A stretch of 64,000 nucleotides of DNA, from assembly GCA_033065855.1 (NCBI GenBank), contig JAVXUO010003148.1, forward strand, positions 124,001 through 188,000. The letters are read 5' to 3'. The notes beneath the pieces are model-generated. The model saw only the letters and a list, made by a program, of their open reading frames with translations. It had not been told where the DNA came from and searched no databases. Source of the DNA: Escallonia rubra. Its lineage: Eukaryota; Streptophyta; Magnoliopsida; Escalloniales; Escalloniaceae. The translations under genes were made by a program, and so were the position numbers. Shown one piece after another: positions 50,001 through 55,024 of the stretch (the stretch's first letter is position 1; each line of letters opens with the position of its first letter).

Positions 50001-50702
50001 CTTTCCGTTCCAGCACAGTTAATCGACTATCTACCTCCAAATCATCTAATCTATGGAAGATTAGCTCCACCTGACTTGCAACAGTCCGCTGCACCTTCTC
50101 CTCCTCGTCAATGTCGAGGGCTTCAAAATACCGTTCCAAGTGCCAAAAAAAGTTATCCACCTGCCTCGCCTCTCTCGTTCCATCGTACAATCTCGGCTTC
50201 GGTATTTTCTTTTGCTTTGGCTGCACCGCAATACACCCATGCCTCATAGCTCTTGTAAGTTCCTTCTTACAAGCAGCTAGTTCTTCTTGGAGCTCCGCGA
50301 CTTTTCCCTTGAGGTCCTTGCGCTGTTGCAAGTGCTCTCCAAGTGCCTCGAGCTCGCTCCTCATGCGTGCTTCTGCATCCCCTATCGCACCGCTCCAATC
50401 CTTCACCGTGCTCTACACTACAAGAAAACTAGCCTATAGTGTCGAAATTGTCTACGGCTCACACGGAGCTGTAGATACAAGTGTCCTTAGACCGACGGTT
50501 CAGGCTGAACCGTGGCCATTGCTTCTTCTCGAAATTGGAACCCAATTGCATCTGTGCCGGCCGTGGGAATTGGGTCGAAAATCAAAAAGAGCTTGGTTAT
50601 GGGTAGGGGATCAGTCAATCAACAATCTCTCATCACCATCCCCGCGCTAGGAAAATCCTCCCTCACCTGAAAATTCGTGCTTCCAGTTCAAAACCATCCG
50701 AA

Positions 50703-51293
50703 ATGTCTCACATCGACACCGTTCCGCTGCACTCTTCATCCCAATCGGACATCGACAAGATCGAAAACCTAATCAACTCGATCTGCCTCTCTCCAAATCA
50801 GCCTCATAAAATTTCCCAAACAATCTCTCTCTCACGCCAACAATCGGCCGTGCGTGAAGACCAAAAATCAGCCTTCATCCCAGGTACGTACAGAAATTGT
50901 TCTCTCAATCTCCCTCTTTCTCTCGCTCTCTCTCAATCTCTTCAGGATGGTGGTCGTGGTGGTTCCGCGGGGAACAAGTTCAGGATGTCGCTGGGTCTGC
51001 CGGTGGCGGCGACTGTGAACTGCGCCGACTACACAGGGGCGAAGAACTTGTACATCATATCGGTGAAGGGGATGAAGGGGAGGCTCAACCGTCTGCCATC
51101 CGCCTGCGTCGGCGACATGGTGATGGCCACCGTGAAGAAGGGCAAGCCCGATCTGAGGAAGAAGGTCATGCCCGCTGTCATTGTTCGCCAGCGCAAGCCC
51201 TGGCGCCGAAAGGACGGTGTCTTCATGTACTTTGAAGGTAGCCCTTTTTCGTGTTCCACTTCATTTCTTACAATGATTTGTTATGTGTTGTAA
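50703..51293 (+). pseudogene. RPL23: Chimeric reading frame: unknown exon + ribosomal protein L23 (uL14) core
   Basis: An open frame of 196 codons. Residues 1-60 ([20 protein letters not shown] and onward) match nothing I recognise and end at a donor-like CCAG/GTACGT (50883/50884). At 50946-51237, after a TCTCTTCAG acceptor, the same unspliced frame reads almost intact L23: [80 protein letters not shown]. That is roughly residues 5-98 of about 140; one notable change is CADYTG for CADNTG. The exon ends at a normal donor (GAAG/GTAGCC) and intron-like DNA follows; the C-terminal exons are absent. Splicing 50884-50945 would put L23 out of frame. It is transposon cargo, not a working ribosomal gene, though transcription is possible. 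Confidence 0.5.
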
Positions 51294-52439
51294 CTTATGT
51301 ATACTAGTTTTGGTTTCAATGGTGGTGTTTCTCGCTTGCATAATATTGTTACTGATGTTTATTGGCCACACAACTTGTTAGAGTACGCTGTTGTATAAGT
51401 CGAAATATATTGGAATTTTGTGACTTTTTTGGAGAGGGAGGAAACTATGTGACTGCTATGGTGATGGACTGTTAAGGAGAAGAGTGGGGAGGGTAAGGGT
51501 GAGAGGTTAGAGAATATGGTTTGGTGGAGGCTAACAGGTCCAGATGTGCTTCACTGACTATTTGGACTGCTGAATGTATAAATTAATGATTACAACGTTT
51601 AAGGGTAAGACGAGGGGATTGGGGTGGGTGCTTGAATGTTTAGGCCATTAGAAGTTACAACTGCACAGTGTCATCTGAACTTCATTTTCTGTTTGCACCA
51701 CTAACAACTAGTTAGATAGAGTTATAGCTTAAATGTTTTATGCATACAATGTAAAATTTTAGAACTTCATGTGAACTAAATCAGATATTACACTTTGTAT
51801 GTTGCTTACCCTTGTTTTATCCTAAGTTGTATTTTGGTACTGTTATTTTTAATTGGCATACGTCTGCAGTCTCACTTTTATGGTTCTTCATGCTAGTGGG
51901 TTCAATCTCATTTACGTTGCTTCCTTGAAATTTTTAAATGACCATTTTGCTAGTAGCTGGCCATTCGTGTCAGGAAGCATAAATCAAGAAGTTCAACCAT
52001 TTTACGTCAATTGTTGTTCTTTTAAGAATGTTTTGGTGACCATTTTGTTATTGAACTTCTAATACATATACACAATCAAATAATGAGTATATGTTTGCAT
52101 TTGCCGGTGGAATTAGAAAGCGTTGATGAAATGTGATCGGTGCCTTAAATGGTGACGAGATAACTACATTTTGCTTTTGGTTGGACATTGGATAGTTTGG
52201 TAGTCACAAGGCCTTTTGTGGTTGTTATCATTCTAGGCACTTAGAACTAGTGGTTATCTCTAATTTTGGAGTTAATGTAAATTATTCATTTGAGACGTTT
52301 GGATGATATGAGGATTTTGGATGTTATACTTCAATTCACTTTTGTTTTTATCTTCTTATGGTTGCAATGTGTATGAACTAAATTGGGTTACTTGATGTTT
52401 TGATGTGGTACATATTGGAATAGGTGAAGTAGGTATACA

Positions 52440-53460
52440 TGTATATAAATATTTGTAATTTGGTAAAATGAAAATAACACCATGTTACAACGCTAAGAAG
52501 CGTCCCAAAAGAGTTACTGGGATGCTCTTTAGCGTCGCTACATGACATATTAAAGTATTATGCTTTAGCACTTTATAGGACGTTTGTTTGCGTTTTGTTA
52601 AGCCTTACTTTTAGGGACGCACGCAAAGACGCTACTAAGTGCCCCAAAAGAGTTATTGGAACGCTCAATAGCGTCGCAATAGGGCATACCAAAGTCTTCT
52701 AGTTAAGCACTTTTTAGGACGCTTATTTTGCGTCTTGTTAGCCTTACCCTTATTGACGCGCTTTTGATGCATCCGCATAACTTATTGTGACGGCGTCTAA
52801 TGGGGCGGGGTTACGACGCAATTCAAAACGTCCTTATGTTAAAAGCGTCCTTACATGTATAACCGTAGGCATAACCTTCAACCTCCCGTAGAGTTAAGTT
52901 TAATACTTGTATCGCATGCTTTTTGTTATTACCTATCTTAACCTTCTTCCACGAGATTGTTATGCATTTGGCTAAACTATAGAGTTAAGTCCCTAAGGCA
53001 TTGTGATTTTAGTTAATTTGATTGGCATGATTATGGTTCCCTTACTGGTGCATCTATTGATCTTGCAGTAGCGGTTCTATAAGTTGGTGCTTGGCAGGGG
53101 TGTAGTGATAGCATGGAAATGATTTTGTAAATATTTTTTTTGACAAATAAGGAGCTATGCCTACGGTATGTACCGTAGGCATAGGTTGGGAATAAAAATA
53201 AGAATATTGCTATGCCTACGGTAGTACCGTAGGCATAGCTATAAAAATAATAATACAGCTATGCCTACGGTAGTACCGTAGTCATAGCTGGGAATAAGTG
53301 GGCTACGGTATAACCGTAGGCATAACCTTCAACCCCCGTAGGCATAGATCTAGGGCATCGCCACTTCTAGCTACGGTATAGTACCGTAGGGATAGGCTAT
53401 GCCTACGGGACATGGCACCTATACCTACGGTACTGTACCGTAGGCATAAGCTGGTTTTCT
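52440..53460. repeat. Subterminal repeats of the Pack-CACTA element
   Basis: Two families. At 52480-52860, AGCGTC/GACGCT motifs recur (AAAAGAGTTAYTGGRAYGCT twice). At 53150-53460, GCTATGCCTACGGTAGTACC and related palindromes around TACGGTA(G)TACCGTA occur at least six times. Such arrays are the usual binding region for CACTA TnpA-type proteins. Confidence 0.5.
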
Positions 53461-55024
53461 TGTAGTGCTACCATATGCCAAAATTCGTACCCCGTCGAAT
53501 TGTCACAGGCATACTTCATGGTCATGTTGTTCTACATATTTATCCTCTACGAAATCGTTCTAGATAAATATGTATAGAACACGATAACCAAATAAGAAAA
53601 CACAAGATTTATGAGAGAACTCAAATCCACTTTCCACAAGTCAGATTTATAACGCTTCATCACATGTATCTCTCAACTGTTTTCCTACTCAAAGAAAGAC
53701 TCTTCTTTCTTTCTTTCCTACTCAAAGAAAGACTCTCATTTCTTGTCCTTAAACACAATACAAGACACCTTACTTATACTTGGAGATAAGCAGTGATCTT
53801 CTCTATCCAAACAATGTGAGACAAGATGTCTTATATACTAAGGATCAAGTTGCAACCTTCTTTAAGTAATCAATGTTGGATATAAATACAAGACATATAT
53901 CAACACTCCAATTTGGTAAAGGGGCAATATTTTTTGGATAAGGGAAGGGATGGGCTACTTTCATCGTCTAGCGTACACCCAAGTAGACCAATAAAGTGAA
54001 TCAAGTGAAGTACACAAGGGCATATATATGTGTCTGGGGTTCGTCAGTTTCAACACACCATTATAATCTCTTCCTTAAGGTTTAAACTTTGAGTTATTAG
54101 TGCATTTCTCTTATCTTGCTGTCTACTTTCGGGCACGTTGCACTGGAGAAGATGGTGTTATTCACATTGACTCGGTCAATGATTAATGTGGTTTCTATCC
54201 ATTCTTGTTCTTTTGGATAAGACGGAATTAGCATATTTGTTGACCTGTTATGGCACCTAAAGATGCAATAATGTACACTCTTCAGTTCTCAGCGGTTGAG
54301 GACACACAGTAGTCCAACATGCAATTAGTCCAACATGCGTACAAAATTGATGGCCATTTGACAATTTAATCAAAGTTTCACTTTCAATGCACCTTCTTGA
54401 ACACACAGTAGTCCAACATGCGTACAAAATTGATGATGGTCGTCGATGAATCTTCCAACTGAGAAGCTAAGGCAGATTGTTCAGGTTGAAAAAGAGTTAC
54501 ACCGTGACATGGTTGGCCTGTCATGCTTCAATGCATCTTCTTGAACACAGAATAGTCAAACATACATGCATCCCAGATATTCATCGAAGTTGCATTCTCA
54601 TTGCATCTTCTTGAATACACAGTAGTCCAACATGCATGCATGGAAACAAGAATATACGTCACTAGTGACAACTTCTCTAGTGATAAGAAAATGTTGTCAC
54701 TATTGGCTCTGAGTAACAAAGTTGCCGCTAATTGCTTCCGGCCATGCATTTATCAAGTGATAAAACTGGTGTCTTCGCCGATTCTTGTCACTAATTCATT
54801 GGTGGCAACACTGTCCAGTTAAATGGCATGTTTTTACAAGATATATAGTGGCGATACCAACCTTTTCGTCACTATTCTTACTATCAGTAGTAACAAAGAC
54901 GTGTACATTTATAGCTGAAATGACTTCCGTGTGCATGATAATATAATTAGGGCATTTAGGGCTTTGTGGCTTTAGGAAGAGTAATTGCAGAAATATATGA
55001 ATACAACAGGGTAAGATAGAGATA

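What the first reader, a model, noticed from the sequence alone, without database searches (positions are those of the whole stretch)
50416..53467. Young Pack-CACTA element carrying a ribosomal protein L23 exon
Seen: 17/18-matching CACTACAAGAAAAC termini, 3-bp CTA target duplication, palindromic subterminal arrays, no transposase, and cargo that is nearly intact L23 exon plus flanking intron. The empty site exists in copy A. Gene capture by CACTA elements is known, but here paired empty and filled sites inside one window fix the boundaries and the relative date exactly.
Basis: partly seen in the sequence, partly recalled or inferred. Interest (0 to 1): 0.75.

Follow-up and report, generated by a model that had tools for sequence, protein, structure and literature searches.

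The report
Jumping gene carrying ribosomal-protein exon
This is a recently inserted plant DNA transposon of the CACTA type that carries an exon of a ribosomal protein gene; comparison with its relatives in the same genome shows that it was stitched together from pieces of other transposons and is one of a large family that picks up and reshuffles bits of host genes.

Summary
Window 50416-53467 is a 3,052-bp CACTA-type element: termini match 17/18, the target duplication is CTA/CTA, and copy A has a clean empty site at 24067-24069. Four of four other copies of the host retrotransposon that I fetched are also uninterrupted there. None of the 19 (of 29) ORFs scanned resembles a transposase.

The window's own assembly (566 Mb, unnamed) contains the donor RPL23 gene (C3034; exon 2 99% identical, other RPL23 loci 88%) and a large family: 183 right ends and at least three left-end types (67, 89 and 25 sites).

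Sibling elements still hold part of L23 intron 1, so L23 was captured there first. The window element is a later mosaic: an alpha-type left part, a 7-8 bp filler, L23 exon 2 plus 762 bp of intron 2, family interior, a templated filler, and the shared right end. Siblings carry other host fragments (mL53-like, DNA pol III-like). A candidate autonomous partner lies at C2266:46410-57983.

It is a new member of a known kind, unusually well resolved. Transcription and present mobility are untested.

The parts
50416..53467 (+). Whole Pack-CACTA element, 3,052 bp
   Evidence: Termini, TSD and empty site; whole-genome relatives
50413..50415 (.). Left target-site duplication CTA
53468..53470 (.). Right target-site duplication CTA
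50416..50433 (+). Left terminal inverted repeat (alpha type)
   Evidence: 17/18 to the right end; alpha-left 34-mer at 67 places in the assembly with up to 3 mismatches, 0 for the reversed control
53450..53467 (-). Right terminal inverted repeat
   Evidence: right-end 30-mer at 183 places with up to 2 mismatches, control 0
50416..50944 (+). Segment shared with alpha-left elements without L23: 97.2-97.9% to four (L025, L030, L031, L033), 94.0-94.7% to eight (L034-L041). Its first 302 bp are also in alpha elements with other cargo (L019-L022, 88.7-96.7%). 50777-50934 resembles host locus C2670 (about 90%)
50703..51293 (+). Open frame, ATG at 50703, 196 codons, runs without stop through the junction into L23 exon 2 (fused ORF); contains a GT..AG pair 50884/50945 whose removal (62 nt) would break the frame
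   Evidence: openness upstream of L23 only weakly unusual, P 0.042
50945..50952 (+). 7-8 bp filler GGATGGTG at the left-segment/L23 junction; TTCAGGATG also occurs inside exon 2 nearby
   Evidence: 16 of 2000 shuffles reach 9 nt
50953..51237 (+). RPL23 (uL14) exon 2, complete, frame intact, 2 missense differences from the donor gene
51238..51999 (+). 5' part of RPL23 intron 2, splice donor GT kept
   Evidence: alignment with donor gene L018
52000..52042 (+). 43-bp stretch at the L23/family junction, source not found
   Evidence: filler test not significant (1837 of 2000 shuffles)
52043..52858 (+). Family interior, 99.1% to L021 2736-3551, with two imperfect 131-139 bp repeats
52859..52895 (+). 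Templated filler at an internal deletion: 52857-52886 copies 53308-53337 (97% over 30 bp)
   Evidence: 25-nt exact match, 0 of 2000 shuffles
52896..53467 (+). Shared right end (572 bp), with palindromic CCTACGGTA/TACCGTAGG array from about 53153
24067..24069 (.). Empty target site in duplicate copy A
47877..53905 (-). Host of the insertion: gag-protease LTR retrotransposon (LTRs 47877-48244 and about 53548-53905), multi-copy in the assembly

Best explanation
The feature is a non-autonomous Pack-CACTA transposon that inserted, leaving a 3-bp CTA duplication, into a gag-protease retrotransposon in copy B while copy A stayed empty (shown). It belongs to a recently amplified family in this genome (shown). 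The L23 fragment was taken from the RPL23 gene at C3034 into a sibling element as part of intron 1, exon 2 and part of intron 2, most likely once (junctions and identity). The window element is a second-generation mosaic: an alpha-left element was joined to an L23-bearing element at the exon-2 edge, and an internal deletion was sealed with a 30-bp copy of its own right end (structure shown). The joining was most likely done by error-prone repair of a transposon break with template switching, and the insertion by a CACTA transposase supplied in trans from an autonomous relative such as C2266:46410-57983 (both inferred). The fused 196-codon frame may be transcribed but probably has no function (inferred).
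For: Ends, TSD, empty site. Family: 183 right ends, 67 alpha-, 89 beta- and 25 gamma-left sites, each with 0 control matches. Of 20 relatives with a right end in the fetched DNA, 18 have a CACTA-type left end with the same 3-bp flank: 14 of 17, one more of these (L011, left end mutated to CATTATACC), and 3 of 3. Of the 100 listed exact right ends (of 183), 27 pair with an alpha left, 33 with beta and 7 with gamma within 12 kb on the same strand. Donor: four-exon RPL23 at C3034, exon 2 99% against 88% for two other loci, 12 of 12 candidates scored. Mosaic. Templated filler. Recent: star-like trees, window branch 0.57% (L23) and 0.88% (right end), donor branch 1.06%. Candidate partner: Transposase_21 in a 776-aa open frame at C2266:49507-50142 between a CACTA end at 46410 and the family right end at 57983, flanks TTC/TTC.
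Against: Most relatives came from a search with the window element, so the sharing of its right end is partly built in; one alpha element, L047, has a right end only 89% alike. L009 has no clean TSD and no left end was found for L023 (2 of 20); the left end of L027 has 5 mismatches in 14. 33 of the 100 listed right ends pair with none of the three left patterns, and the pairs were not checked for TSDs. Of three window junctions, one carries strong evidence of templated filler, the exon junction is suggestive and the 43-bp one is unexplained. The order of duplication and insertion rests on the empty site: right of the site half the A/B divergence (about 0.9-1%) is no larger than the window's right-end branch. 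The candidate partner was recognised by ends and one domain; its middle was not read, its right end is 97% alike over 422 bp, and its left end is of another type. No RNA, small-RNA or mobility data.
Confidence: 0.88

Rival explanations
1. The window element captured L23 directly from the RPL23 gene, and the beta and gamma siblings are its descendants.
For: Exon 2 starts within 1 nt of the native splice edge and has no silent difference from the donor.
Against: Siblings L009-L011 hold about 330 bp of native L23 intron 1 that the window element lacks, and the downstream junction at element position 1627/1628 is shared by all 10 L23 copies examined that reach it, so the window element is derived, not ancestral.
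Confidence: 0.06
2. Copy A originally held the element too and lost it by precise excision, so the empty site is secondary.
For: CACTA elements can excise (recalled); A and B are duplicates; right of the site the divergence does not by itself separate the two dates.
Against: No footprint and a single CTA in A; four of four other copies of the host retrotransposon fetched are uninterrupted, so the empty state is ancestral and A needs no further event.
Confidence: 0.05
3. Hybrid excision of two neighbouring elements (the model proposed for Arabidopsis Pack-CACTA), not template switching during repair, built the mosaic.
For: Different left ends with one right end are what hybrid excision predicts; model as summarised in passages of PMC8903248 and PMC13317346.
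Against: The templated filler at 52859-52895 and the nested gamma junctions at about L23 element positions 572, 717 and 910 fit synthesis-dependent repair better. The two models are not exclusive.
Confidence: 0.3

Closest known systems
Pack-CACTA / Pack-TYPE transposons (Arabidopsis, rice, maize; PMC8903248, passages read)
   Same: CACTA termini with TSDs, no transposase, host gene fragments, sometimes from more than one locus; mobile in Arabidopsis lines
   Different: Here the donor gene, intermediate siblings, empty site and a candidate autonomous partner are all in one assembly, and the captured exon is seen joined to several different left ends
Tgm-Express1 of soybean (PMC1947982, passages read)
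   Same: CACTA element with several host gene fragments with introns; its exons are spliced into chimeric transcripts
   Different: Tgm-Express1 sits in a gene intron and has transcript data; this one sits in a retrotransposon and expression is unknown
Pack-TIR capture by gap filling / fork switching in animals (PMC8277862, passages read)
   Same: Captured DNA with microhomology, and in one case a short new insertion, at the breakpoints
   Different: Animal TIR elements; here several rounds of exchange between siblings are visible
CACTA elements of Chenopodium with captured fragments (PMC8978399, passages read)
   Same: Gene fragments captured in the 5' part of CACTA elements
   Different: The fragments described there lie upstream of the element's own coding domain; this element has no transposase that I found

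Membership tests
CACTA (En/Spm) superfamily | Termini beginning CACTA, inverted | tested here: met
   17/18 inverted termini, CACTACAAGAAAAC
CACTA (En/Spm) superfamily | 3-bp target-site duplication | tested here: met
   CTA/CTA with empty site; 18 of 20 relatives
CACTA (En/Spm) superfamily | Subterminal repeated motifs near both ends (recalled) | tested here: inconclusive
   Dense on the right, one motif on the left
CACTA (En/Spm) superfamily | Mobilised by a Transposase_21-type transposase (recalled) | not testable with these tools
   Candidate partner with shared right end and matching flanks; mobilisation not tested
Pack-CACTA (Pack-TYPE) | No transposase of its own | tested here: met
   19 of 29 ORFs scanned, no transposase
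Pack-CACTA (Pack-TYPE) | Contains a fragment of an identified host gene | tested here: met
   RPL23 exon 2 and intron 2 from C3034
Pack-CACTA (Pack-TYPE) | Several copies with the same termini | tested here: met
Pack-MULE | Mutator-type termini and 8-11 bp TSD (definition recalled) | tested here: not met
   CACTA termini, 3-bp TSD
Helitron | No TSD, TC/CTRR ends (definition recalled) | tested here: not met
   TSD present, inverted termini

The most novel reading that the evidence does not exclude
The family works as a modular gene-shuffling system: a shared right end is repeatedly re-paired with interchangeable left ends and cargo, so that a captured exon passes from element to element by recurrent repair of broken copies. 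L23 is seen with three left types at five different left breakpoints, and a gamma-left copy (C1407) shares four derived substitutions with the beta-left copy L009. In the window element this produced an in-frame fusion ORF starting from the transposon's own 5' region.
Probability: 0.5. Interest if true: 0.6.

Novelty: new member of a known kind. Interest (0 to 1): 0.5.

Why it matters
How DNA transposons acquire and pass on host exons is mostly inferred from end products. Here donor gene, siblings nearer to the first capture, recombinant, nested deletion derivatives, empty site and a candidate autonomous partner are held in one assembly, so competing capture models can be tested on real junctions. 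It does not change the known picture that CACTA elements carry gene fragments.

Tried and rejected
Identity of the upstream ORF (50703-50883): no Pfam family over cut-off (CDC14 at E 0.13; the L025 version had none at E 0.01) and no PDB match up to E 10. A host-like match exists at C2670 (88% over 552 bp with L025), upstream of an ORF with a weak DUF4094 match (E 0.0029, below cut-off); I recalled that ORF as galactosyltransferase-like, which no call confirms. I first read the upstream segment as a host first exon; the genome search showed that its beginning belongs to alpha-left elements in general.

Rfam: 0 matches in the window at gathering score. The fused ORF as a sign of selection was set aside: P 0.042 by a simple Markov model, and exon 2 has 2 missense and 0 silent changes. 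Templated origin of the 43-bp stretch at 52000-52042 was tested and not supported. Linkage of other transposases to family right ends was compared by eye on partial lists only (150 of 2228 candidates, against 100 of 183 right ends); C2266 was the one case seen. In one search the right-end tree left out L010, L012, L014 and L018, whose best match was too short. Species identity: not determined. Literature, open PMC library only: the search for CACTA with 'ribosomal protein L23' gave 7 papers, none about CACTA capture of this gene judging by the titles and abstract starts listed; searches for Pack-CACTA and capture terms listed related work, and no such case is visible in those listings. The Catoni 2019 paper was not held; its model is cited through passages.
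Full report
OBSERVATION. The element at 50416-53467 is real. Its ends are inverted repeats of 17/18 (91% over the 22-nt arm), and CACTACAAGAAAAC occurs once on each strand in 64 kb, at these ends. CTA flanks both sides, and copy A carries the uninterrupted sequence with one CTA. The insertion lies in a gag-protease LTR retrotransposon on the minus strand (Ty3_capsid E 1.2e-13, gag-asp_proteas E 4.7e-10), which is multi-copy in the assembly (246 candidates, 40 scored). Four of four copies fetched are uninterrupted at the site, so the empty state is ancestral.

CARGO. The long ORF matches Ribosomal_L14. Against solved structures the best match is a 60S L14/uL14 chain (4v3p and others, which I recall as plant ribosomes) with two differences over 95 residues. 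This is the eukaryotic RPL23, not bacterial L23. The donor gene lies in the same assembly: C3034 (L018) has a 13-nt exon 1, exon 2 of 285 bp, and exons 3 and 4. A search with exon 2 scored 12 of 12 candidates: the window copy; C3034 at 99%; full-exon copies at C1162, C897 and C456 (97-98%); five partial copies (C1407, C268, C2109, C1650, C1649); and two other RPL23 loci, C1358 and C1359, at 88%. The donor is therefore C3034 or a very recent copy of it.

FAMILY. Whole-genome search found many relatives sharing the right 572 bp, most of those listed at 97-99% (40 of 828 candidates scored). I fetched 20 loci from its places, of which one is the donor gene, then three alpha elements and one gamma L23 copy. 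Three left-end types occur: alpha (window, L019-L022, L025, L047-L049), beta (L009-L011, L024, L026-L028) and gamma (L012-L017, L055). Of the 17 loci with a right end, 15 have a left end with the same 3-bp flank (14, L011); L009 fails and no left end was found for L023. The other three loci were not scored: no right end found in L012 and L018, a truncated one in L020. The three alpha elements also match. Genome-wide counts are 183 right ends (up to 2 mismatches), 67 alpha, 89 beta and 25 gamma (up to 3 mismatches each), each with 0 matches for the reversed control. Of the 100 right ends listed, 27 pair with an alpha left, 33 with beta and 7 with gamma within 12 kb on the same strand, and 33 with none; these pairs were not checked for TSDs. 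Most relatives were found with the window element as bait, so the constancy of the right end is partly ascertainment; L047 has an alpha left with a right end only 89% alike.

HISTORY. Beta siblings L009, L010 and L011 hold about 330 bp of native L23 intron 1, exon 2 and part of intron 2. All 10 L23 copies examined that reach it (window, L009-L017) share the downstream junction with family sequence at element position 1627/1628; C1407 stops at 920 and C1649 was not fetched. In the window element the intron-1 part is replaced by a segment found in alpha elements without L23, at 97.2-97.9% in four and 94.0-94.7% in eight, joined at the exon-2 edge by GGATGGTG. Gamma copies start within L23 at about positions 572 (C1407), 717 (L012-L014) and 910 (L015-L017). 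C1407 shares four derived substitutions with L009 that the window copy, L010, L011 and the donor lack, which indicates passage of the L23 fragment between left-end types. An internal deletion in the window element (2443/2481) is sealed by a copy of its own right array: 25 nt exact, 0 of 2000 shuffles. The exon-edge filler is weaker (16 of 2000), and the 43-bp stretch at 52000-52042 is unexplained (1837 of 2000). Siblings carry other host fragments: mitochondrial L53-like in L026 (PF10780, E 3.6e-10) and DNA polymerase III-like in L024 (PF13177, E 1.6e-8).

AGE. Trees of the L23 segment (10 element copies plus donor) and of the right end (17 copies) are star-like. The window branch is 0.57% and 0.88% and the donor branch 1.06%; bootstrap values are 40-64 and 29-90. 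A/B divergence is K2P 0.051 and 0.055 in the bin before and the bin spanning the site, and 0.019 and 0.020 in the next two. Left of the site the window branch is clearly shorter than half of this; on the right the two are similar, so the order duplication-then-insertion rests mainly on the empty site. Years are not given because no rate was calibrated here.

MECHANISM. Insertion by a CACTA transposase in trans is inferred from the anatomy. The genome is rich in Transposase_21 (2228 candidates, 150 scored). One, in a 776-aa open frame at C2266:49507-50142, lies between a CACTA end at 46410 and the family right end at 57983 with TTC on both sides; the middle of that element was not read. Building of mosaics by repair with template switching is favoured over hybrid excision by the filler and the nested junctions, but not proven. 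The fused ORF (50703-51293) would be read only if the GT/AG pair at 50884/50945 is not spliced; function is doubtful.

KNOWN KIND. Pack-CACTA elements, multi-locus cargo and chimeric transcripts are in print (passages of PMC8903248, PMC13317346 and PMC1947982), as is microhomology-guided capture in animals (passages of PMC8277862). The find is a new, unusually well-documented member.

Noticed in passing
13336-34592 and 39568-64000: Large direct duplication (copies A and B). Kilobase bins left of the CACTA site have K2P 0.012-0.087 (10 bins), the spanning bin 0.055, bins to the right 0.006-0.039 (11 bins); the drop lies close to the insertion, and gene conversion is one possible cause.
   Followed up: partly
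47877-53905 (-) and 21533-24565 (-): gag-protease LTR retrotransposon with an internal repeat at about 396-bp spacing; no reverse transcriptase in the three ORFs of it that were scanned; LTR pairs differ by K2P 0.107 (A) and 0.078 (B).
   Followed up: partly
24147-24203 against 53547: 57 bp beside the right LTR present in A and missing in B; it resembles an initiator-tRNA primer-binding site (recalled, not tested).
   Followed up: no
17555-18082 (+) and 43895-44377 (+): Duplicated ubiquitin-conjugating-enzyme-like ORF fragments; the copy at 17555 scored PF00179 E 2.7e-7, the second was not scanned.
   Followed up: no
2288-2965 (-): ORF with a MuDR transposase DNA-binding domain (PF03108, E 2.1e-10).
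   Followed up: no
L026 (element 462-989) and L024 (element 1756-2007): Sibling CACTA elements carry mitochondrial ribosomal protein L53-like and DNA polymerase III-like fragments.
   Followed up: partly
C2266:46410-57983 of the window's assembly: Candidate autonomous CACTA relative with a fourth left-end type and flanks TTC/TTC.
   Followed up: partly
52000-52042: 43-bp stretch at the L23/family junction of unknown source.
   Followed up: partly
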